A DNA stretch of 64,000 nt from Roseicyclus sediminis (GTDB taxonomy: Bacteria > Pseudomonadota > Alphaproteobacteria > Rhodobacterales > Rhodobacteraceae). The DNA is taken from positions 1-64,000 of the forward strand of contig NZ_JAOPHT010000016.1 in assembly GCF_025515305.1 (NCBI RefSeq). Direction: 5' to 3'. Of this stretch, positions 25,201 to 34,144 are shown in pieces. The notes under the pieces were generated by a model, which was not told the origin of the DNA, ran no database searches, and saw only the letters and a program-made list of their open reading frames with translations. Numbering within the stretch: position 1 is the stretch's first letter; every line of letters starts with the position of its first letter. The position numbers and the translations under genes are program-made.

Positions 25201-26409
25201 TCAGATTGGCCGCCGCACGGTGATCTGGGTCACGTCGGTGTTCCCGAAATGGAACGTCGACGCGCAGGAACACAGGTAGAAATTCCACATCCGCCGGAAC
25301 CGCTCGTCGAAGCCCAGTGCCGCGACCTCGTCCCAACGGGCGTTGAACGTCTCGTGCCAGCGCCGCAGCGTCTGAGAATAGCTCTCGCCGAACTCGATCG
25401 AGCCCGCGATCTCCAGTCCCGCACGGCCCACCTCTTCGCGCAACACCTTGGGCGCGGGCAGCATGCCGCCGGGGAAGATGTACTTCTGGATGAAGTCCAC
25501 GCCGCGCCGGTAGATCTCCCAGCGGCGGTCCTGCACGGTGATGATCTGCAGCGTCGCCTGCCGGCCGGGCTTCAGCCGTTCGCGCAGGGTGTCGAAATAG
25601 ACCGGCCAGTAGCGTTCGCCCACCGCCTCGAACATCTCGATCGAGGCGATGCCGTCGTAGATACCCTTCTCGTCGCGGTAGTCCTGCAGCTTGATCTCGA
25701 CCCGGTCCGAGAGGCCCGCACGGGCGATCCGCTCGACCGCGTAGTCATGCTGTTCCTTCGAGATGGTCAGGCCCGTCACCCGCAGCCCGCGCTCCTTCGC
25801 GGCGTATTCCGCGAAGCCGCCCCAGCCGCAGCCGATCTCGAGCACGTGCTCGCCCGGCTGGGCGCCCATCTGGTCGACCATCGAGGCGTACTTGGCGATC
25901 TGCGCCGCTTCCAGGCTCTCCTGGCCGGTTTCGAACTTGGCCGAGGAATAGGTCATCGTGTCGTCCAGCCAGAGCCCGTAGAACTCGTTGCCCAGATCGT
26001 AGTGGTAGGAGATGTTCTTCTTCGCCTGCCGCTTCGAATTCGACTGCAACCAGAAGCGCAGCCGCTCGTAGGCGCGCACCAGGCCCATGCCGAGAAAGCC
26101 GTCGTAGACCTCCTCGTTGTCGGCATGGACGAGATCCATGAAGGCCTGCAGGTCCGGCGTCGACCACCACTCGTCGAGATAGGCCTCGCAGAAGCCCAGG
26201 TCGCCCTCGCGGATCAGCCGCCCGAAGATGTCGGTGTTGTGGATGTGCAGCTCGGCAACCGGGCCGGGCTTCGGCCCCTCGGTGCGGAAGACGCGGCCGT
26301 CGGGCAGCACCATGTCGAGCCGCCCGTGCTCCATCCGTCCCGCCTGTTCGAAGACCGCGTTGAAGTATCGCGGAAGCCCGGTTTCACCCGATGTCGTGGT
26401 CTTTATCAT
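25201..26409 (-). CDS. cfa: Cyclopropane-fatty-acid synthase family methyltransferase
   Basis: A 402-aa SAM-dependent enzyme that methylenates unsaturated acyl chains in membrane phospholipids. KKNISYHYDLGNEFYGLWLD and MTYSSAKFE are family signatures, VLEIGCGWGGFAEYAA is the SAM-binding glycine motif, and IEMFEAVGERYWPVYF and FIQKYIFPGG complete the pattern. The start at MIKTTTSG (26409) was chosen because a longer frame reads into phrB. It follows phrB by 75 bases in the same direction. In R. sphaeroides a photolyase gene and a cfa gene are neighbours in the RpoE/ChrR singlet-oxygen regulon; no clear RpoE promoter was seen here. Confidence 0.92.
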   Translation of the reverse strand: MIKTTTSGETGLPRYFNAVFEQAGRMEHGRLDMVLPDGRVFRTEGPKPGPVAELHIHNTDIFGRLIREGDLGFCEAYLDEWWSTPDLQAFMDLVHADNEEVYDGFLGMGLVRAYERLRFWLQSNSKRQAKKNISYHYDLGNEFYGLWLDDTMTYSSAKFETGQESLEAAQIAKYASMVDQMGAQPGEHVLEIGCGWGGFAEYAAKERGLRVTGLTISKEQHDYAVERIARAGLSDRVEIKLQDYRDEKGIYDGIASIEMFEAVGERYWPVYFDTLRERLKPGRQATLQIITVQDRRWEIYRRGVDFIQKYIFPGGMLPAPKVLREEVGRAGLEIAGSIEFGESYSQTLRRWHETFNARWDEVAALGFDERFRRMWNFYLCSCASTFHFGNTDVTQITVRRPI

Positions 26410-26484
26410 TGTCGTTTTCCATGTCGTTCCGGCATCTTGGCCCGATGCCGCCGCGTTAGACAAGCCCCGGTCTGGCCGGGACAT

Positions 26485-27903
26485 TCAGAAGCTTCGGTTG
26501 GAATAGGCGTCGAGCGCCCGCTGCCGTCCCAGCGCCGTGTCGACCACCGGCCGCGCCGGGTAACGGTCGGCCGCCGACATGCCCCAGCTTTCGGGAATGG
26601 CATCGAAGTAGCTCCGCGCCGCCTGCGGCGGATCGGAGGACAGTTCGGCCACCCAGCGGCGCCGGTAGCGGCCGTGGGGATCGAACTTCTCGGCCTGCGT
26701 CTCGGGGTTGAACACCCGGAAATAGGGCGCCGCGTCCGGTCCCGATCCGGCCGACCATTGCCAGCCCATCGCGTTCGAGGCCGGATCCCAGTCGACGAGG
26801 CAATCCTCGAACCAGTCGAGCCCGATTTTCCAGTGGGTCAGAAGGTGCTTGCAGAGATAGGAGGCGACGAGCATCCGCGCGCGGTTGTGCATCCGCCCCG
26901 TCACGTACATCTCGCGCATCGCGGCGTCGACGACCTGCATGCCCGTGCGGCCCCGCCTCCAGGCGCGCACGTCCTCGCGCCCGGCATCCTCGTTCCACGG
27001 AAAGGCATCCCAGTCCTCGCGCCAGTTCGTCTCCACGATATGGGGCGTGTGATGGACGAGGTGATGGGCGAAGTCGCGCCAGACGAGCTCCTTGAGGAAG
27101 GTCTCGGCCCCGGGCTTGCCCTGCTCCATCGCGCGCATCCCCGCCCACCAGCAGGTCCGCGCCGAGATCTCTCCATGAGTGAGGTTTTCCGACAGGTGCG
27201 ACGTCCCGTCCCGCGCGAGGTCGTCGCGACGATCGGCATAGTCCGCGATGCCCTCGGCGATGAATGCGCCGAGCCGCCCGCGCGCGGCCTCCTCGCCGAC
27301 GGCGAGATAGGGGCGCACGATCTCCGCGCCGCGCCGCATCGCGTCGCCGAGGCCCATGCCGGCGATATCCTCCGACGCGGGCCAGACCTCGGGCGCGGCA
27401 AGCTTCGGCACCGCCAGGGGTTCGCCCGGATCGCGGCCCCGCACCGCCTTCCAGAACGGCGTGTAGACACGGTAGAACCCGCCCACACCGGTCGCGACCG
27501 TCCATGGCTCGAAAAGGACATGCGCGCCGTGGCTGCGCGCCTCGACGCCCTCGGCCTTCAGCGCGGCCTTCACCGCCTCGTCCCGCCGGCGCGCGGCGGG
27601 ATCGTAGAGCCGGTTCCAGTGCACCTCGCGCGCGCCGGTCTCGGCGATCAGGGCGCGCAGAACGTCGAGCGCCCGTCCCCGCCGCACGATGAGCCTCGAT
27701 CCCGCCCCGGCCAGGGCCGCGCCGAACGCCTCCGCGCCGAGGCCGAGCCGCCATTTCGGCGCCGCGCCGTGGCCTTCCATGACCTCGTCGACGACAAAGA
27801 CCGGGATCACCGGGCACCCCGAGGCCGCCGCCGCGCAGAGCGCGGGGTTGTCGCCCAGCCGGAAGTCCCGCCGCGCCCAGTAAAGGATCGGTGTTCTGGT
27901 CAT
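26485..27903 (-). CDS. phrB: Deoxyribodipyrimidine photolyase
   Basis: A 472-aa FAD photolyase that repairs UV-induced cyclobutane dimers with blue light. The N-terminal alpha/beta antenna-binding domain begins PILYWARRDFRLGDNPALCA. The C-terminal FAD domain has WRRGRTGMQVVDAAMREMYV, the RMHNRARMLVASYLCKHLL segment and DPASNAMGWQW. The start at 27903 (MTRTPILYW) was taken over 27918 on family resemblance. A strong hairpin lies upstream that ends the dmdA-acuI transcript, so phrB must have its own promoter. Confidence 0.93.
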   Translation of the reverse strand: MTRTPILYWARRDFRLGDNPALCAAAASGCPVIPVFVVDEVMEGHGAAPKWRLGLGAEAFGAALAGAGSRLIVRRGRALDVLRALIAETGAREVHWNRLYDPAARRRDEAVKAALKAEGVEARSHGAHVLFEPWTVATGVGGFYRVYTPFWKAVRGRDPGEPLAVPKLAAPEVWPASEDIAGMGLGDAMRRGAEIVRPYLAVGEEAARGRLGAFIAEGIADYADRRDDLARDGTSHLSENLTHGEISARTCWWAGMRAMEQGKPGAETFLKELVWRDFAHHLVHHTPHIVETNWREDWDAFPWNEDAGREDVRAWRRGRTGMQVVDAAMREMYVTGRMHNRARMLVASYLCKHLLTHWKIGLDWFEDCLVDWDPASNAMGWQWSAGSGPDAAPYFRVFNPETQAEKFDPHGRYRRRWVAELSSDPPQAARSYFDAIPESWGMSAADRYPARPVVDTALGRQRALDAYSNRSF

Positions 27904-27987
27904 TCTCGCGTCGCCCACCCGTCTGTCCCGCGCGAGTTAAGGCCGCGGCCCCCTCCGTCAAGGAACACGCGCAGCTTCATCCTGGCA

Positions 27988-28045: not shown

Positions 28046-29038
28046 TCAGGCCGAAACGTCCACCACGACGCGGCCCCGGACGCCCCCCTTCAGGATCGCG
28101 CGACCGAGATCGGGCAGATCGGCGAGGCCCGCCGGCTGCACCATCGCCTCGAGCTTGTCCATCGGCACGTCGCGGGCCACGCGCTCCCAGGCCCTGACCC
28201 GGTTCCCGTAGGGCTGCATCACGCTGTCGATCCCCAGAAGGTTCACGCCGCGCAACAGGAACGGCACCACCGTCGCGGGCAGTTGCGCGCCGCCCGCCAG
28301 ACCCACCGCCGCGACCGACGCACCGTATTTCATCTGCCCGAGCACGCGCGCCAGCATCGCGCCGCCCACGGCATCGACGCACCCAGCCCAGGTCTCGGCC
28401 TCCAGCGGCCGCTTCACCGTCTCGGCCAGCTCCTCGCGGGGCACGATCCGCTTGGCGCCGAGGTCCGTGAGGTAATCGGCCTGCTCGGGCCGCCCGGTGA
28501 CGGCGGCGACCTCGTAACCGAGATGCGCCAGCGCGGCAGTGGCGACCGAGCCCACCCCGCCCGCAGCTCCAGTCACGAGAACCTCACCATTTCCGGGCGT
28601 TAGACCATGATCTTCAAGCGCCATGATCGCGAGCATCGCGGTCAGGCCCGCGGTCCCCACCGCCATGGCAGAGCGCGTCGTCAGCCCCTCGGGCAGCGGG
28701 ACCAGCCAGTCGGCCCTGACCCGCGCCTTCTCGGCATAACCGCCCCAATGCACCTCGCCCACGCGCCAGCCTGTCAGCACCACCTTGTCGCCGGGCTTGT
28801 AACGGGCGTCGTCGCTGGCCTCCACGGTGCCGGCGAAGTCGATGCCCGGGACATGGGGATACTTCCGCACGAGCCCGCCGCCCGAGCCCAGGCAAAGGCC
28901 GTCCTTGTAGTTCAGCGTCGAATATTCGACCGCCACGGTCACGTCGCCCTCGGGCAGCGCGTCGTCCTCGAGCGTCCGGACCATGGCCGATTTCTGGCCC
29001 TGTTCTTCCTCTTCCACCACCAAGGCACGAAATGTCAT
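28046..29038 (-). CDS. acuI: Acrylyl-CoA reductase (NADPH), AcuI-type
   Basis: A 330-aa zinc-free medium-chain reductase. It resembles the quinone-oxidoreductase group and in particular AcuI, which reduces toxic acryloyl-CoA to propionyl-CoA during DMSP catabolism. Visible features are STLNYKDGLCLGSGGGLV, HVPGIDFAGTV, and the NADPH-binding VLVTGAAGGVGSVATAALAH. The gene starts 34 bases after dmdA; the dmdA-acuI pairing is known from Ruegeria pomeroyi and supports the specific call. Without that context it would only be called an MDR-family oxidoreductase. Confidence 0.88.
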   Translation of the reverse strand: MTFRALVVEEEEQGQKSAMVRTLEDDALPEGDVTVAVEYSTLNYKDGLCLGSGGGLVRKYPHVPGIDFAGTVEASDDARYKPGDKVVLTGWRVGEVHWGGYAEKARVRADWLVPLPEGLTTRSAMAVGTAGLTAMLAIMALEDHGLTPGNGEVLVTGAAGGVGSVATAALAHLGYEVAAVTGRPEQADYLTDLGAKRIVPREELAETVKRPLEAETWAGCVDAVGGAMLARVLGQMKYGASVAAVGLAGGAQLPATVVPFLLRGVNLLGIDSVMQPYGNRVRAWERVARDVPMDKLEAMVQPAGLADLPDLGRAILKGGVRGRVVVDVSA

Positions 29039-29072
29039 GTCGGTCTCCCTCGTCTTTCCGGTTGCGTGAATT

Positions 29073-30197
29073 TCACGCGGCAATCGTCTGTTTTTCTTCC
29101 CAGAAACTTCCCTGAACCATTGCGGGAAAGCTTCCGTCCTGGGTTTGAACCGTCAGTTCGGTGCCCGCGTCCCAGTGGGTCATGCGAACCATGCCTATTG
29201 CAACCCCACACCCGTAATCTGGCGATATCGCCGCCGAGGTGACGCTGCCCACGCGCTTGTCTCCGGCCAGAAGCGGCCAACCCCGGTCGCATCGCGGCAG
29301 CTTCTTGGCGTCGATCCCGATCGGCCGGATCTGCTTGACCGGGCCTTCCTTGGCCACCCGCAGGAGCGCGTCGCGCCCGATGCAGCCGATGGCCGTCGCC
29401 GTGTTGCAGAACCGCCCCAGCCCGCATTCATGCGGCGTGTTCTCGCGCGTCATGTCGTTGCCGTAGCTCAGCAGGCCCGCTTCCACCCGCTCGATCCCGT
29501 TGGGGCAGCCCGCGCGCACGTCGAGGTCGCGGCCCGCCTCCATCAGCGCATCCCAGAGCGGCATTCCGATGTCCTCGCCCTCGACATAGATCTCGAAGCC
29601 GCCCTGCTTGGAATAGCCGGACCGCGCGATGACAAGGTCGCGGCCCTTGAAGTCGAAATGCCCGAAGCGGAAGAAGCGCACCTGCCGCACGCCATCGCCG
29701 AAGACCCGCGCCATCAGGTCGTCCGACAGCGGCCCCTGCACGGCCAGCGGCGAGACGTCGGGCTCGTCGATCAGCACGTCGAGGCGGTAGCCGTTGGCGA
29801 TGGCCTTGATCCACAGCAGAAGGTCGCTGTCGGCGATGGAGATCCACCAGCGGTCCTCGGCCAGCTTCACGGCGACGGGGTCGTTCAGCATGCCGCCCGT
29901 CTCGTCGACCATCGGCACGTAGTAGCACTGGCCGGGCAACATGCCCCGCAGGTCGCGCGGCGTCAGCATCTGCACGAGGCGGCCCGCGTCGGGCCCCCGC
30001 ACCTCCACCTGCCGCTCGCAGGCCACGTCCCAGATCTGCACGGCGGACTTGAGGTGGCGGTAATCCTCCTCGACCGAACGGAAGACCGTGGGCAGGAGCA
30101 TGTGGTTGTAGACCGTGTAGGCCGAGACGCCCGCACGCTCGACACCGTCGGAGAAGGGTGTGCGCCGGAGACGGCGCGAGGGGGAGATCAGCGCCAT
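29073..30197 (-). CDS. dmdA: Dimethylsulfoniopropionate demethylase
   Basis: A 374-aa tetrahydrofolate-dependent enzyme of the GcvT fold that takes a methyl group from DMSP to give methylmercaptopropionate. SRRLRRTPF at the N-terminus, AYTVYNHMLLPTVFRSVEED, MLTPRDLRGMLPGQCYYVP and GNDMTRENTPHECGLGRFCN agree closely with authentic Roseobacter DmdA, beyond general GcvT similarity. The start is ATG 30197, overlapping the end of the DinB-like gene by ten bases; the longer frame reads through that gene. It is the fourth gene of a five-gene leftward operon ending with acuI. The downstream methylmercaptopropionate genes dmdB, dmdC and dmdD are not in the window. Confidence 0.93.
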   Translation of the reverse strand: MALISPSRRLRRTPFSDGVERAGVSAYTVYNHMLLPTVFRSVEEDYRHLKSAVQIWDVACERQVEVRGPDAGRLVQMLTPRDLRGMLPGQCYYVPMVDETGGMLNDPVAVKLAEDRWWISIADSDLLLWIKAIANGYRLDVLIDEPDVSPLAVQGPLSDDLMARVFGDGVRQVRFFRFGHFDFKGRDLVIARSGYSKQGGFEIYVEGEDIGMPLWDALMEAGRDLDVRAGCPNGIERVEAGLLSYGNDMTRENTPHECGLGRFCNTATAIGCIGRDALLRVAKEGPVKQIRPIGIDAKKLPRCDRGWPLLAGDKRVGSVTSAAISPDYGCGVAIGMVRMTHWDAGTELTVQTQDGSFPAMVQGSFWEEKQTIAA

Positions 30198-30703
30198 TCC
30201 GGCACCTCCTCGGGCATGAAGGGAAGGTCCGTGTCGTCGGGACGCGCGCCCGCCGCCGTGAGCATCGCGTGGACCTGCCCGCGATGATGGGTCTGATGAT
30301 TGAAGAGGTGCATGACGCAGAGCGCGAAGGGCTTGGCCATGTCGCGCCCGAGCACGGAGGAATGCCACCGCAGGTCGCCCGACAACTCCTCGTCCGTCAC
30401 CATCCAGGCCCAGCCGGCGACGCGCGCGTCGAGCTTCGGGCGTTCGGCCCAGAGCGTCGGCCAGTCGAAGCGGTCGGCCGAACCCGATATGGCGCCGCCC
30501 GGCCCCTCGCCGCCGTCGAAGCGCGCCATCCACATCAGGTCGCCCCACATGAGGTGGCTGAGCGTCGCCCGGATCGAGCCGAAGAAGGCGCCGCGGTCTT
30601 CTTCCCGCGCCGCCTCGGACAGGCCCGCCGCAGCATGGTAGAGCGACTGGTTCTGCCAGGCGTTGTAGCGTGCCATGGTCTGGCAATAGGCGGGCGTGAT
30701 CAT
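30188..30703 (-). CDS. DinB family protein
   Basis: A 171-aa four-helix-bundle protein of the DinB/YfiT family. Metal-binding histidines are expected and seen at LSHLMWGDL (His in the first helix pair) and HLFNHQTHHRGQ (the C-terminal HxxxH). Relatives include thiol-dependent S-transferases and glutathione-linked enzymes, so a role in thiol chemistry alongside DMSP breakdown is an attractive guess without direct support. It overlaps dmdA by ten bases and starts four bases after the DUF1326 stop. Confidence 0.88.
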   Translation of the reverse strand: MITPAYCQTMARYNAWQNQSLYHAAAGLSEAAREEDRGAFFGSIRATLSHLMWGDLMWMARFDGGEGPGGAISGSADRFDWPTLWAERPKLDARVAGWAWMVTDEELSGDLRWHSSVLGRDMAKPFALCVMHLFNHQTHHRGQVHAMLTAAGARPDDTDLPFMPEEVPEWR

Positions 30704-30707
30704 GTGC

Positions 30708-31418
30708 CTATTTCCCGGCCGAACCCGACCAGTCGATGGCGCAGATCTCGCCCGACTTGCCCGAGAGGTCCCAGACCCGCCCGAAATCGCGCACCTTGGA
30801 CTTCAGCCCGCGCGCGGCGATAACGTCGGGACCCATCCAGTATTTCGTGTTGCTGATCACCACCGGATGATCCGGCGAGGCGCCATCGATCATCTCGATC
30901 TCGCCCTGGATCTTGCGGCCGACATAGAGACCGCGCTTGCGCCCCTCGCGGACGATCTCGACCTTCTCGCGCTCGGCCCCGATGATCTCGGAGACAAGGA
31001 GGGTGAAAAGGCCGGTGGTGCCGCCCGCGGCCCCCGACAGGATCTGCAGCAGGCCATTGTACGCCTTGCCGCTCGCGCGCTCGTCGATATAGGCCGCCAC
31101 CTTCCAGTCGCCCTCGGCCATCTTGCCGGGGATCTCGACCATGAGACCCACGTTCAGGCCCGCAAGGCTCTCGCCCTCGTAGTGGCCTTCGTCGATGGCG
31201 ATGGCCATCCAGGCCTTGCAGGTGCCGTCGGTCGGCGGGTGTTTCCCGAGGCTGACGACGCAGGGGCAGAACACGGTGCAGGAGCAGTTGAGGAACAGCT
31301 CCCCCTTGATCGCCCAGTCGGTCGGGCGCATCTGCCGGCGCTTGGGGTTTTCCACCCGGCTGTCGATGCGTTGGCTGACCGGCAGTCGGTCGGCGTCGGC
31401 TCTGCGTTTCACGGCCAT
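30708..31418 (-). CDS. DUF1326 domain-containing protein
   Basis: A 236-aa protein whose core opens with TDWAIKGELFLNCSCTVFCP, a Cys-rich motif (CSCTVFCPC) diagnostic of DUF1326. The remainder is beta-rich (GKAYNGLLQILSGAAGG, then IQGEIEMIDG). The cysteines suggest metal or redox binding. It is usually found next to DUF2182 membrane proteins, as here, 12 bases downstream of one. Its biochemical role is not known. Confidence 0.9.
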   Translation of the reverse strand: MAVKRRADADRLPVSQRIDSRVENPKRRQMRPTDWAIKGELFLNCSCTVFCPCVVSLGKHPPTDGTCKAWMAIAIDEGHYEGESLAGLNVGLMVEIPGKMAEGDWKVAAYIDERASGKAYNGLLQILSGAAGGTTGLFTLLVSEIIGAEREKVEIVREGRKRGLYVGRKIQGEIEMIDGASPDHPVVISNTKYWMGPDVIAARGLKSKVRDFGRVWDLSGKSGEICAIDWSGSAGK

Positions 31419-31430
31419 GTCTTTCCTCCG

Positions 31431-32192
31431 TCAGATGAGGGCGGCAACGAGCGTCACGAGCCCGCCCGCGATCAGTAGTCCACCCAGCGGCCGGGTGATC
31501 ACCGCGCCGATCCAGGTGAGTTTCTCGAGCGCCATCACGAGGGTGGCGAGCCCCATGAAGGCGAGGTTCATCACGCCACCCGCGAAGGCGAGCAGCATCA
31601 GCGCCCAGCAGCAGCCGAGGCAGACCGCGCCGAGGCGGAGGCCGTTCCGGAACGGCCCCTCCGCCCAGTGTTCCATGAAGAAGGCCAGCGGCGCGCGGCA
31701 CTGGCTGAGGCAGGCCTCCTTGAAGGCGCTGAACTGGTAAAGCCCGGCCAGGACCAGAAGCCCGCCCGACAGCGCCGCCGAGCGGCTGTCGCCGAAGACG
31801 GTCAGCAGGCCTGCCTGCGTCAGCGCCATCTGCGCGCCCGCCGCAAGGACGGAGAACCCCGCCCAGATCAGGAGGTATCCGCCCAGCAGCGCGCCGAATC
31901 GCGTCTGGGTCCGCGCGCCAAGCTCGTCATAGGTGGCAAAGGCGGGAAGTGCGGTCGGCGCCATCATCGCGGCGCTCATCAGGAGCCACATGGCGACAAG
32001 GCCCGCGAAGCCCGCCGCATCCGGCGACACGATGCACAGGCTGCGCAGGAATTCCGCCCCGTAGATGGCCCCCGCCTCACGCAGATCCTGCGGCAGAGCC
32101 ATGACGTAGAGCGCGGCCCATGCAACGAAGATACCGCCGTAAAGCGCCAGCCAGTGCGGGCGCGTCATGCCGCGAATGCGTGCCGCAACCAT
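31431..32192 (-). CDS. DUF2182 membrane protein
   Basis: A 253-aa membrane protein with six to seven hydrophobic segments and the family features WLLMSAAMMAPTALP, FKEACLSQCRAPLAFFMEHW and LGAVCLGCCWALMLLAFAGG. The cysteine pairs imply metal binding. A GGAGGATCGCGGAGC stretch precedes the ATG at 32192; a second ATG eight codons in is also possible. It is the first gene of the leftward dmdA operon and is divergent from the GntR regulator 70 bases away. Confidence 0.9.
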   Translation of the reverse strand: MVAARIRGMTRPHWLALYGGIFVAWAALYVMALPQDLREAGAIYGAEFLRSLCIVSPDAAGFAGLVAMWLLMSAAMMAPTALPAFATYDELGARTQTRFGALLGGYLLIWAGFSVLAAGAQMALTQAGLLTVFGDSRSAALSGGLLVLAGLYQFSAFKEACLSQCRAPLAFFMEHWAEGPFRNGLRLGAVCLGCCWALMLLAFAGGVMNLAFMGLATLVMALEKLTWIGAVITRPLGGLLIAGGLVTLVAALI

Positions 32193-32236
32193 GCTCCGCG
32201 ATCCTCCCCGAACGCGAAAATCCCTTGCGCAGATAA

Positions 32237-32262
32237 TTGTCAGACTTTTAAATGTCTGACAA
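32237..32262. promoter_or_regulatory. Perfect inverted repeat, candidate GntR operator
   Basis: Arms TTGTCAGAC (32237-32245) and GTCTGACAA (32254-32262) are exact reverse complements around an AT-rich eight-base centre. The right arm touches the regulator's ATG. Its size, symmetry and place between divergent genes fit an operator for the FadR-type regulator, able to control both its own gene and the DUF2182-to-acuI operon. Confidence 0.75.
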
Positions 32263-33003
32263 ATGAAAATCGATCCCGATCACCCGTCCGGCCTGTCCGC
32301 TCAGATCGCCGATGCGATCCGCGACGCCATCGTGTCCGGTCGCCTGATCGTGGACGAGCGCCTGCCGTCCGAGGCCGAGCTGGCCGAGCAGTTCGACGTC
32401 TCTCGTCCCACCGTGCGCGAGGCGCTGAAGCGGCTGGCGGCGCAGTCGCTGATCCGGACGCAGAGGGGCGCGACGGGCGGGGCCTTCGTCAACCGACTGA
32501 GCTACCAGGACGCCTATCCGCAGGCGATCACCACCGCGACGCTCTTGCTGTCGATGAACGACGTCGCCTTCGAGACCGCCTGCGAGGCGCGGTTCGCCCT
32601 GGAGCGCGCCTGCGCGCCTCTCGCGGTCGAACGGCGCACGCCCGACCAGCTGGCCACGATGCGGGCCGAGATCTTCCGGCAGGGCCAGCCTGGGCTGACA
32701 GACGAGGCGTTCTGCGCCTCGGACGTCGCGTTCCACCGGGCGCTGGTCGATGCGGCCGGCAATCCCGTGCTGTCCTACGCGCTTGCGGGGGCGGTCGAGG
32801 CGATGCAGCCGCTGATGAACATGATCACCTTCACCGCCCGGTCTCGGGAACGGATCGGTGCGCTGCACACTGCGCTGGCGGACGCGGTGGAGGCCGGGGA
32901 TGCCCCCGGGGCGCTGGCCGAGCTCGACGCGATCGAGACCTATACGAAAGAGCTCGCCCGTGCCGTTCTCGATGCGCGCGCGCAGGCCCGGCAGGAGCGA
33001 TAA
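32263..33003 (+). CDS. GntR/FadR-family transcriptional regulator
   Basis: A 246-aa regulator. The N-terminal winged helix includes LPSEAELAEQFDVSRPTVRE followed by ALKRLAAQSLIRTQRGA. The C-terminal FCD effector domain has CASDVAFHRALVDAAGNPVL with its metal- or ligand-binding histidine. It is divergent from the operon carrying dmdA and acuI. In Ruegeria pomeroyi a GntR-type gene lies beside dmdA, so this may be a DMSP- or acrylate-responsive regulator of DmdR type; that is inference from position. A perfect inverted repeat directly before its ATG suggests autoregulation. Confidence 0.88.
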   Translation: MKIDPDHPSGLSAQIADAIRDAIVSGRLIVDERLPSEAELAEQFDVSRPTVREALKRLAAQSLIRTQRGATGGAFVNRLSYQDAYPQAITTATLLLSMNDVAFETACEARFALERACAPLAVERRTPDQLATMRAEIFRQGQPGLTDEAFCASDVAFHRALVDAAGNPVLSYALAGAVEAMQPLMNMITFTARSRERIGALHTALADAVEAGDAPGALAELDAIETYTKELARAVLDARAQARQER

Positions 33004-33106: not shown

Positions 33107-34144
33107 ATGATCCATCGTTTCTCTCTCGGCACCGCGATCTCGCTCACTCTGGCCGTCCCCGCCTTCGCTCAGGACCTTCTCGTCTTCGACTACTCGGGCT
33201 TCGAAAACCCCGACTATCACCAGCCCTTCATCGACACCCATGGCAGCGGCCCGGAATTCGTCTTCTTCGGCGACGAGGACGAGGCGTTTCAGCGGCTGCT
33301 CGCGGGCTTCCGCTCGGACGTGACGCATATCTGCGCGGGCTCCGTGCCGCGCTGGCAGGAATCGGGCATCATCGAGCCCTGGGACCGGACCCGCATCGCG
33401 GCCTACGAGACGCTGAACGCCGACCTCGTGGGCCAGGACGTGCTGGCCGGATCGGCGGAGCTGTTCTTCCTGCCCACCGACTACGGCTCGACCGCGGTCG
33501 CCTACAACTCCGACGAGGTCCCGGCCGAAGACGTGGCCAGCCTCGAGATCTTCAACAACCCCGCCTATGCCGGGCGCCTGTCGATCCCCGACAACGTCGA
33601 TGACGCCTATGCGCTGGCCTACCTCGCCACGGGCGTGACCGACTGGTCCGACGTCACCGACGCGCAGTTCGAGGCGGCGACCGAATGGCTGCGCGGCATT
33701 CACCCGAACCTCCTGAACTACTGGGTCGACCCCGCCGAGATCCAGCAGCTGATGGCCTCGGGCCAGGTGCTGGCAGCCTGGGTCTGGAACGAGGTTCCGG
33801 TGGCGCTGGCCGACGAGGGCTTCCCCGTGGGCTTCCAGCGCAATACGGCCGAAGGTTCGAGCGTCTGGCTCTGCGGCTACGTGAACATGGCCGAGGGCGA
33901 AGGCTCCGAGGACCAGGCCTATGACTACGTCAACGCGATGCATGCGGAGGTCTCCGCCCGGCCGCTCCTCGACAACGGCTTCGGCACGGCGAACGACGCC
34001 GCCCTGCAGTCGCTTGGCGCGGAGGCACTGGAAGCCGCGGGCCTTGGCACGGTGACGGTGCCTGTCCTGGCGCAGCTGCCGATCTCGAACGAGCAGCGCG
34101 AGCGTCAGGCCGAAGCCTTCGAGCGGATCAAGGCGGGCTTCTGA
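33107..34144 (+). CDS. Periplasmic ABC transporter solute-binding protein (PotD-like)
   Basis: A 345-aa secreted protein with a signal peptide ending at LAVPAFAQ. The mature part (VFDYSGFENPDYHQPFID, then FLPTDYGSTAVAYNSDEVPA) matches the spermidine/putrescine-type extracellular solute-binding family. No ATPase or permease gene is beside it, and a terminator follows, so its transporter partners must be encoded elsewhere. The ligand is unknown; polyamines or related cationic compounds are the usual guess. The ATG at 33107 leaves a 103-base gap after the GntR gene. Confidence 0.87.
   Translation: MIHRFSLGTAISLTLAVPAFAQDLLVFDYSGFENPDYHQPFIDTHGSGPEFVFFGDEDEAFQRLLAGFRSDVTHICAGSVPRWQESGIIEPWDRTRIAAYETLNADLVGQDVLAGSAELFFLPTDYGSTAVAYNSDEVPAEDVASLEIFNNPAYAGRLSIPDNVDDAYALAYLATGVTDWSDVTDAQFEAATEWLRGIHPNLLNYWVDPAEIQQLMASGQVLAAWVWNEVPVALADEGFPVGFQRNTAEGSSVWLCGYVNMAEGEGSEDQAYDYVNAMHAEVSARPLLDNGFGTANDAALQSLGAEALEAAGLGTVTVPVLAQLPISNEQRERQAEAFERIKAGF

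What the first reader, a model, noticed from the sequence alone, without database searches (positions are those of the whole stretch)
28046..33003. dmdA-acuI in a five-gene operon with DUF2182, DUF1326 and DinB
Seen: gaps or overlaps of 12, 4, -10 and 34 bases link DUF2182, DUF1326, DinB, dmdA and acuI, with a terminator after acuI and a GntR regulator divergent at the head. Known: dmdA-acuI is a Roseobacter pair, but the three extra genes are not part of the described pathway. Inference: two cysteine-rich proteins (DUF1326/DUF2182) and a thiol-transferase-like DinB protein could deal with metal, thiol or acrylate stress caused by DMSP breakdown.
Basis: partly seen in the sequence, partly recalled or inferred. 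Interest (0 to 1): 0.7.

Follow-up and report, generated by a model that had tools for sequence, protein, structure and literature searches.

The report
Copper-chaperone-like genes inside DMSP operon
A marine bacterium carries its DMSP-demethylating enzyme in an operon with a copper-chaperone-like gene pair and an acrylate-detoxifying enzyme; the same gene order recurs across its bacterial family and survives where the DMSP enzyme is missing or of another kind, so the extra genes look like the steadier part.

Summary
The five-gene order is real: gaps of 12, 4, -10 and 34 bases, with a divergent GntR gene. The claimed terminator after acuI was not found. DUF2182 is now Pfam PpoB2 ("copper chaperone"). 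Across Rhodobacteraceae, 113 of 140 fetched dmdA loci have DUF1326 upstream on the same strand, and all 180 DUF1326-bearing genomes of 345 also have PpoB2. A GntR-type twin palindrome lies between GntR and the operon in 50 of 98 loci (0.02 expected); a half-site lies there in 79 of 98 but inside only 1 of 103 operons, pointing to one controlled promoter. Against a DMSP-specific reading: in 27 of 134 usable loci (not a random sample) dmdA is absent while PpoB2-DUF1326-(DinB)-acuI stays. A divergent DmdA clade sits in the same slot on scattered backgrounds: 2 changes on its own tree, 12 on a GntR+AcuI tree, 8 each on photolyase and CFA trees. Best reading: a GntR-controlled acryloyl-CoA/thiol-copper stress operon whose dmdA is exchangeable cargo. 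Copper, acrylate sensing and all enzyme roles here are inferred. A Marinovum plasmid record already labels two of these genes "involved in DMSP breakdown"; I found no paper on them in the open PMC library.

The parts
32233..32262 (.). Operator/promoter: twin GntR-type palindrome GTCAGAC-N8-GTCTGAC (core 32239-32260) overlapping a -35/-10-like pair of the operon promoter on the - strand
   Evidence: the only twin site with an AT-rich spacer among the five places matching the pattern in the whole genome
32263..33003 (+). GntR/FCD-family regulator, divergent from the operon; likely the local regulator
31431..32192 (-). PpoB2 (former DUF2182, PF09948): membrane protein of the copper-chaperone family; five Cys and several Met invariant in 37 orthologues
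30708..31418 (-). DUF1326 (PF07040): soluble protein with CxCxxxCPC...C motif; constant partner of PpoB2
30188..30703 (-). DinB-family protein (PF05163): thiol S-transferase-like four-helix fold with invariant His50, His136, His140; optional member of the operon
29073..30197 (-). dmdA, DMSP demethylase; overlaps the end of DinB by 10 bases
28046..29038 (-). acuI, acrylyl-CoA reductase (YhdH/AcuI family)

Best explanation
The five genes form one operon, controlled by the divergent GntR regulator through a twin palindrome at its head. Its steadier core is not dmdA but the PpoB2-DUF1326 pair, usually with acuI and often DinB: an operon against the electrophile and thiol/copper stress that comes with acrylate and acryloyl-CoA. 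AcuI reduces acryloyl-CoA to propionyl-CoA (known chemistry of the family). DinB probably couples a cellular thiol to an electrophile at a metal site (inferred from the fold). PpoB2 in the membrane and DUF1326 in the cytosol probably bind and pass on Cu(I), which becomes loose when electrophiles or methanethiol disturb the thiol pool (inferred). dmdA is cargo in a slot of this operon: often present, absent in some lineages, and of a divergent kind on scattered backgrounds, so that DMSP demethylation comes under the same control. Shown here: gene order, its conservation, the conserved palindrome, the PpoB2-DUF1326 pairing, persistence without dmdA, and conflicting gene histories. Inferred: that GntR binds there, acrylate as the signal in this organism, copper as the metal, and every biochemical role.
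For: Order: 113 of 140 dmdA loci with DUF1326 upstream on the same strand; of 128 with at least 4.2 kb upstream PpoB2 103, DUF1326 104, DinB 57, divergent GntR 92; acuI downstream in 106 of 129. dmdA is dispensable: of 134 usable DUF1326 loci 96 have dmdA and acuI, 27 acuI only, 7 dmdA only (6 with a dmdB-like gene), 3 neither, 1 both but without PpoB2 found; 24 of the 27 are in genomes with no dmdA over cut-off. Pairing: all 180 DUF1326 genomes have PpoB2, 5 of 165 others do; PpoB2-DUF1326 distances correlate 0.63, other pairs within the operon at most 0.28. Operator: twin site in 50 of 98 loci (0.02 expected), half-site 80 of 98 (0.68 expected); a stricter half-site in 79 of 98 heads against 1 of 103 operons inside. 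Slot: divergent DmdA needs 2 changes on its own tree, 14 on the AcuI tree, 12 on a GntR+AcuI tree (AU p 0.000134), and 8 each on trees of the nearby photolyase and CFA genes, where the same rows need 2 and 1 on the DmdA tree. Plasmid copies as a unit. Literature: dmdA-acuI of Ruegeria pomeroyi is induced about 10-14-fold by DMSP or acrylate but not by MMPA, and acuI protects against acrylate (PMC3338564, passages). PpoB2 is involved in copper transfer to a tyrosinase in Marinomonas (PMC2855505, passages). Motifs and folds.
Against: No known copper enzyme sits in the operon; SBP56 (copper methanethiol oxidase) gave no match in the own genome. The window's PpoB2 lacks the Met-rich loop that about a third of the orthologues have (48 of 150). 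The DUF1326 model resembles acetoacetate-decarboxylase-like enzymes, weakly (TM about 0.4), which could mean an enzyme rather than a carrier; the DinB matches have TM up to 0.69 but none with E under 0.001. acuI is missing from 10 of 134 usable loci, so it is not constant either. PpoB2-DUF1326 pairs also occur away from acuI, so the pair is not specific to acrylate. No expression data for these three genes were seen. dmdA distances correlate with photolyase at 0.41, more than those of AcuI (0.27) or GntR (0.30), so dmdA need not be exchanged more than its neighbours; GntR and AcuI correlate only 0.28, so counts on their joint tree are rough, and all trees are quick ones with many unsupported forks. 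Part of the conservation is regional: photolyase and CFA recur nearby. Twin palindromes were not seen in 48 of 98 heads.
Confidence: 0.45

Rival explanations
1. One reading: the three extra genes are accessories of DMSP demethylation that deal with metal, thiol or acrylate stress from DMSP breakdown.
For: dmdA and DUF1326 co-occur: 124 of 146 dmdA genomes against 56 of 199 others. A dmdB-like gene joins the operon in several loci and SBP56 lies beside it in a few. Marinovum algicola pMaD9 carries GntR//PpoB2-DUF1326-acyl-CoA ligase-dmdA-acuI-SBP56, with PpoB2 and DUF1326 labelled as involved in DMSP breakdown.
Against: 27 of 134 usable loci keep PpoB2-DUF1326-(DinB)-acuI without dmdA. Among dmdA-less genomes a cupin DMSP lyase is over cut-off in 22 of 56 with DUF1326 and 25 of 80 without. 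Five Rhizobiales dmdA loci lack the three genes.
Confidence: 0.25
2. Copper supply for methanethiol oxidase: PpoB2 and DUF1326 load copper into MtoX (SBP56), which oxidises the methanethiol from DMSP demethylation.
For: SBP56 lies in 7 of 269 loci searched, one of them without the trio, and on pMaD9. MtoX of Hyphomicrobium is copper-dependent (PMC5739008, passages). PpoB2 is a copper chaperone for one oxidase (PMC2855505). In dmdA-less genomes SBP56 is weakly associated with DUF1326 (14 of 56 against 16 of 143, p 0.026).
Against: The own genome has no SBP56 match. Within dmdA genomes SBP56 is not associated with DUF1326: 77 of 124 against 11 of 22, p 0.35. In many organisms mtoX has its own SCO1/SenC and MauG partners.
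Confidence: 0.1
3. Regional synteny without functional meaning: the genes are together because this chromosome region is conserved.
For: Photolyase, CFA synthase and other genes also recur nearby; photolyase and CFA distances track each other at 0.62, and dmdA tracks photolyase at 0.41.
Against: In the window genes overlap or lie 4-34 bases apart; one operator at the head and almost none inside; the unit occurs on plasmids with no photolyase or CFA listed in the stretch shown; gene histories conflict while order is kept.
Confidence: 0.1
4. DUF1326 is an enzyme with an acetoacetate-decarboxylase-like fold acting on acrylate-derived or C3 carbonyl compounds, and PpoB2 is its membrane partner.
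For: Foldseek best matches of the DUF1326 model are MppR and acetoacetate decarboxylases, best E about 1e-6.
Against: TM only about 0.4 with rmsd about 12; the conserved feature is a Cys cluster; no catalytic residue comparison was made.
Confidence: 0.1

Closest known systems
dmdA-acuI operon of Ruegeria pomeroyi DSS-3 and other Roseobacters (PMC3338564)
   Same: dmdA immediately followed by acuI; there acrylate- and DMSP-inducible
   Different: The passages I saw describe a dmdA-acuI operon with its own promoter (222 bp upstream of dmdA used as reporter in PMC7181598) and do not mention PpoB2, DUF1326 or DinB; the word GntR does not occur in PMC3338564.
ppoB1-ppoB2 tyrosinase operon of Marinomonas mediterranea (PMC2855505)
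   Same: PpoB2 family (COG5486/PF09948)
   Different: There the partner is a tyrosinase; here DUF1326 and no known copper oxidase in the operon.
[quoted passage not shown] also described in PMC3338564 passages)
   Same: acuI in a regulator-linked DMSP/acrylate operon
   Different: TetR-type AcuR instead of GntR/FCD; DddL lyase instead of DmdA; no PpoB2 or DUF1326 mentioned in what I saw.
mtoX-SCO1/senC-mauG clusters (PMC5739008)
   Same: copper-chaperone gene in a DMSP-related sulphur pathway
   Different: different chaperone family, and no SBP56 match in this genome
Marinovum algicola DG 898 plasmid pMaD9 locus MALG_05024-05030 (CP010864.1)
   Same: GntR//PpoB2-DUF1326-...-dmdA-acuI; depositors already labelled the two genes as involved in DMSP breakdown
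   Different: an acyl-CoA ligase gene before dmdA, no DinB, SBP56 after acuI, on a plasmid

Membership tests
DmdA (DMSP demethylase) | score over the NCBIfam equivalog cut-off NF009133 | tested here: met
   677.7 bits against 410
DmdA (DMSP demethylase) | closest solved structures are DmdA rather than GcvT | tested here: met
   3tfh E 1e-109 against 1.9e-35 for the next; the listing calls 3tfh GcvT-like, that it is Pelagibacter DmdA is recalled
DmdA (DMSP demethylase) | THF-dependent DMSP demethylation | not testable with these tools
   no assay
AcuI (acrylyl-CoA reductase) | NCBIfam equivalog NF051456 cut-off | tested here: not met
   435.3 bits against 440, just under
Acrylyl-CoA reductase family YhdH/AcuI | TIGR02823 cut-off and similarity to solved AcuI | tested here: met
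   445.2 against 297.25; 5gxf/5gxe E 8e-175
PpoB2 (PF09948) | Pfam gathering score | tested here: met
   196.7 bits against 28.7
PpoB2 (PF09948) | operon partner of a tyrosinase | tested here: inconclusive
   no tyrosinase among the eight window proteins scanned; none found in the own genome, but the control genomes did not ring either
PpoB2 (PF09948) | copper transfer | not testable with these tools
   five invariant Cys and several invariant Met in 37 orthologues are consistent only
DUF1326 (PF07040) | Pfam gathering score | tested here: met
   160.5 bits against 25
DinB thiol S-transferase superfamily | Pfam DinB score, fold, and metal-binding His triad | tested here: met
   PF05163 85.5 against 23; mycothiol S-transferase 8f5v TM 0.63, YizA 2qe9 TM 0.69, Foldseek E 0.013 and 0.0011; His50/136/140 invariant in 37, their assignment as the triad is recalled
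DinB thiol S-transferase superfamily | thiol transfer activity | not testable with these tools
   no assay
GntR/FCD regulators | HTH plus FCD domain and a palindromic site at a divergent promoter | tested here: met
   PF00392 and PF07729 over cut-off; site conserved; binding itself not tested

The most novel reading that the evidence does not exclude
The locus is a standing dock for DMSP demethylases: a GntR-controlled operon of a copper-handling pair (PpoB2-DUF1326) with an acryloyl-CoA reductase keeps its order across a bacterial family, while the dmdA allele in its middle is gained, lost and exchanged in place many times. DMSP demethylation is thereby tied to copper/thiol protection, and DUF1326 is the missing soluble partner of PpoB2 copper chaperones throughout bacteria.
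Probability: 0.3. Interest if true: 0.75.

Novelty: new variant of a known kind. Interest (0 to 1): 0.55.

Why it matters
dmdA decides how much marine DMSP sulphur enters the food web rather than leaving as DMS, and the work on its control that I saw comes from Ruegeria pomeroyi, where the reported promoter lies directly at dmdA. Most of the dmdA loci fetched here (113 of 140) have a longer operon with undescribed genes, usually facing a GntR regulator, so the model strain may not represent the group. A candidate regulator and operator make the acrylate-dmdA link testable. The pairing of DUF1326 with PpoB2 (180 of 180 genomes of this family sample) gives a first handle on the role of a widespread unknown family.

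Tried and rejected
MtoX copper-supply idea: tested with SBP56 over 345 genomes. Not associated with DUF1326 within dmdA genomes (77 of 124 against 11 of 22) and no match in the own genome; in dmdA-less genomes there is a weak association (14 of 56 against 16 of 143, p 0.026). Kept only as a rival.

DMSP-lyase explanation for the dmdA-less loci: PF16867 in 56 DUF1326-bearing and 80 of the 143 DUF1326-lacking dmdA-less genomes; 22 and 25 over cut-off, no clear difference. Non-cupin lyases (DddP, DddD, DddY, DddX) were not tested.

Client-enzyme idea: type-II DUF1326-PpoB2 pairs (9 loci L242-L250, plus L235 and L238) have no recurring neighbour that I could see by eye; these neighbours were not run against a family library. 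Seven plasmid regions were opened; in the four outside Rhodobacterales a DUF2182 gene is listed next to DUF1326 in three (two Streptomyces, one Polaromonas, there divergently) and not in Variovorax; none is listed beside the Leisingera copy. That gene table is incomplete by its own description.

Singlet-oxygen idea from the nearby photolyase and CFA genes: not pursued.

Terminator after acuI: not found. PDB sequence search with DUF1326: nothing up to E 1. Class-wide DUF1326 search: 33 of 240 genomes, contexts not seen. Papers: 0 hold DUF1326 or DUF2182; COG5486/COG5588 only PMC2855505; dmdA with GntR 3 papers, passages of two seen and neither about a dmdA regulator; acuI with DinB 3 papers, by title not about this; dmdA, acuI, hypothetical protein, conserved and copper together none; dmdA, acrylate, repressor, Roseobacter 4 papers, passages of two seen. 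Only the open PMC library was searched, so the novelty statement is limited to it.

Rows dropped or corrected: one search used 141 dmdA genomes as listed; one search added five (G172, G146, G120, G310, G314), inferred from the E-values to match its tally of 146. dmdA surroundings were fetched for 140 of 146. The 40 loci were picked by hand from places listed away from a listed dmdA; they cover 32 of the 56 dmdA-less DUF1326 genomes and eight dmdA genomes, so 27 of 134 is not a prevalence. One search skipped 3 loci (GntR too far or downstream) and loci without a GntR hit. One search set aside 16 loci with under 4.5 kb downstream. One search left out four long-branch loci (L136, L192, L199, L230) and kept only loci with GntR, PpoB2, DUF1326 and AcuI (95). 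The 70% identity line between the two DmdA groups was chosen, and the operator pattern after seeing the window's site. The HMMs were grown on the same loci on which they were counted. The 80 named loci overlap with the 140. The window itself is counted among the 98 heads and 103 operons.

Full report
OBSERVATION. On the - strand DUF2182 (31431-32192), DUF1326 (30708-31418), DinB (30188-30703), dmdA (29073-30197) and acuI (28046-29038) follow with gaps of 12, 4, -10 and 34 bases, and a GntR/FCD gene lies divergently at 32263-33003. Families score over their cut-offs, except that AcuI falls just under the NF051456 equivalog line (435.3 against 440) while passing TIGR02823 and matching solved AcuI (5gxf, E 8e-175). 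Pfam now names DUF2182 'PpoB2, copper chaperone'. No terminator after acuI was found.

CONSERVATION OF THE ORDER. In 345 genomes of the family (344 genera), dmdA is over cut-off in 146, DUF1326 in 180 and PpoB2 in 185. I fetched the surroundings of dmdA in 140 of the 146. Of these 140 loci, 113 have DUF1326 upstream on the same strand; 57 show PpoB2, DUF1326, DinB, dmdA and acuI in that order (48 with divergent GntR in range), and 43 the same without DinB (35 with GntR). Among 80 named loci from a second collection, which overlap with the first set, 43 have the whole arrangement with GntR, including Sulfitobacter, Roseovarius, Planktotalea, Yoonia, Marivita and HTCC2083; dmdA loci of Oricola, Zhengella, Hoeflea, two Rhizobiaceae genomes and two Donghicola species lack the three genes, and Pacificispira has GntR and dmdA only. 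Two plasmids carry the unit without DinB: Marinovum algicola pMaD9 and Antarctobacter pSMS3-2.

ONE CONTROLLED PROMOTER. Between GntR and the first operon gene lies a twin palindrome, in the window GTCAGAC-N8-GTCTGAC at 32239-32260. With a 3-12 base spacer it occurs in 50 of 98 testable loci (0.02 expected from shuffles), and a half-site in 80 of 98 (0.68 expected). Where GntR faces dmdA directly the twin site is there in 4 of 6 loci (L065, L071, L088, L171; not L132, L166), and where dmdA is missing from the locus and GntR faces PpoB2 the twin site is there in 4 of 9 and a half-site in 7 of 9. A stricter half-site occurs in 79 of 98 heads but inside only 1 of 103 operons. In the own genome five places match the pattern; the others have GC-rich spacers. 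The -35-like hexamer of the only promoter-like match in the operon overlaps the site, as in a repressor-controlled promoter. In R. pomeroyi dmdA-acuI is induced by acrylate and DMSP but not by MMPA (PMC3338564, passages), and 222 bp upstream of dmdA serve as its reporter promoter (PMC7181598, passages). That R. pomeroyi has the short form of the locus is my inference; its genome was not among the named loci.

dmdA IS THE OPTIONAL PART. I fetched 40 hand-picked DUF1326 loci not found at a listed dmdA; most show PpoB2, DUF1326, sometimes DinB, then acuI directly. Over both sets, 134 loci had enough downstream sequence: 96 with dmdA and acuI, 27 with acuI only, 7 with dmdA only (6 of them with a dmdB-like ligase), 3 with neither, and 1 with both but no PpoB2 found. 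Of the 27, 13 have DinB, and 3 lie in genomes with a dmdA elsewhere (L237, L239, L240). On the AcuI tree of 129 loci dmdA presence needs 19 changes, of which supported branches force only 3; on a GntR+AcuI tree of 95 loci 8 (6 forced), no more clustered than in about a quarter of shuffles; on a photolyase tree of 78 loci 11 (5 forced), no more clustered than in about half of the shuffles. Gain and loss cannot be told apart by these counts. The 1.65 kb gap in some loci holds an acyl-CoA ligase like that of pMaD9; calling it dmdB is my inference.

EXCHANGE IN PLACE. DmdA falls into a near group (at least 70% identity to the window, 106 loci) and a divergent group (34 loci), and both occupy the same slot: 93 of 106 and 20 of 34 have DUF1326 upstream. 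The divergent group needs 2 changes on the DmdA tree but 14 on the AcuI tree (17 rows; 4 forced; 39 to 48 of 500 shuffles as low). On the GntR+AcuI tree each of 12 rows stands alone (12 changes, 8 forced; one clade rejected, p-AU 0.000134). With genes outside the operon as yardstick the picture is the same: 8 changes for 10 rows on the photolyase tree (6 forced) and 8 for 8 on the CFA tree (6 forced), against 2 and 1 for the same rows on the DmdA tree. Distance correlations over the loci are 0.63 for PpoB2-DUF1326 and 0.62 for photolyase-CFA, but at most 0.28 for every other pair within the operon, GntR-AcuI included. The order is kept while alleles differ in history, with PpoB2-DUF1326 moving together. 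Against a special role of dmdA as the moving part: its distances follow photolyase better (0.41) than those of AcuI (0.27) or GntR (0.30) do, and all trees are quick ones with many unsupported forks.

THE PAIR. All 180 DUF1326 genomes have PpoB2; 5 of the 165 others do. The CxCxxxCPC motif is in 162 of 163 DUF1326 domains scanned. PpoB2 has five invariant Cys and several invariant Met in 37 orthologues. One PpoB2 type has a His-flanked Cys pair (CHGVCH) and mostly a Met-rich loop (mean 6.2 Met against 1.0); it goes with one DUF1326 type in 52 of 52 loci, while the other DUF1326 type goes with the other PpoB2 type in 73 of 73; 25 loci, the window among them, combine the second PpoB2 type with the first DUF1326 type. 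Pairs also stand elsewhere in the genomes without acuI. In three of the five plasmid regions opened outside the dmdA operon a DUF2182 neighbour is listed (Streptomyces twice, Polaromonas; not Leisingera or Variovorax). PpoB2 is reported as involved in copper transfer to a tyrosinase in Marinomonas (PMC2855505, passages); no tyrosinase was found here, in a search whose controls did not ring. The DUF1326 model (mean pLDDT 80) matches acetoacetate-decarboxylase-like folds weakly (TM about 0.4). The DinB model (pLDDT 95) matches DinB-family structures, among them YizA and mycothiol and bacillithiol S-transferases (TM 0.69, 0.63, 0.53; no E under 0.001), with invariant His50, His136 and His140.

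TESTS AGAINST SPECIFIC STORIES. Copper supply to MtoX: no SBP56 match in the own genome and no association with DUF1326 within dmdA genomes (77 of 124 against 11 of 22, p 0.35), with a weak association in dmdA-less ones (14 of 56 against 16 of 143, p 0.026); it lies in 7 of 269 loci. In many organisms mtoX has its own SCO1/SenC partner (PMC5739008, passages). DMSP cleavage: a cupin lyase is over cut-off in 22 of 56 dmdA-less genomes with DUF1326 and 25 of 80 without; the own genome has one, so it may form acrylate itself. Kinship of the genomes was not corrected for in these tables.

READING. The most economical account is a GntR-controlled operon against acryloyl-CoA and thiol/copper stress, with dmdA as exchangeable cargo. 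The gene order, its control region, its conservation and the pairing are well supported; GntR binding, acrylate as signal, copper as metal and the roles of DUF1326 and DinB are inferred.

NOVELTY. I found no paper on DUF1326, on its link to dmdA or acuI, or on a GntR regulator of dmdA, in the open PMC library only. The depositors of Marinovum pMaD9 had already labelled PpoB2 and DUF1326 as involved in DMSP breakdown, so the association was noticed at least once. I rate it a new variant of a known kind.

Noticed in passing
26485-27918 (-) and 25201-26484 (-): DNA photolyase and CFA synthase follow acuI in the window and recur near the locus in 69 and 64 of 180 loci by clustering; their distances track each other (0.62) better than the operon genes (at most 0.41, with dmdA).
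   Followed up: partly
30708-32192: The window pairs a DUF1326 of one type with a PpoB2 of the other type, like 25 of 150 loci; CHGVCH-type PpoB2 with the second DUF1326 type was not seen in these 150.
   Followed up: partly
L242-L250, L235, L238: Second kind of DUF1326-PpoB2 pair, mostly with DUF1326 first, without acuI or dmdA in the pair and with differing neighbours.
   Followed up: partly
L333 2853-12854: Marinovum plasmid pMaD9 carries an acyl-CoA ligase, dmdA, acuI and SBP56 in one run after PpoB2-DUF1326, with a gene annotated as glycine cleavage T protein beyond GntR.
   Followed up: partly
L077, L319, L091: mtoX (SBP56) lies beyond the GntR gene, on the strand opposite to the operon.
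   Followed up: no
L163: dmdA followed by mtoX on the same strand, without hits for the three genes or acuI.
   Followed up: no
33107-34144 (+): Solute-binding protein of the PotD-like kind downstream of GntR, also near the locus in some relatives; substrate unknown.
   Followed up: no
L271 (upstream of GntR): A second, weaker dmdA-like gene (259 bits) about 3.4 kb upstream of dmdA.
   Followed up: no
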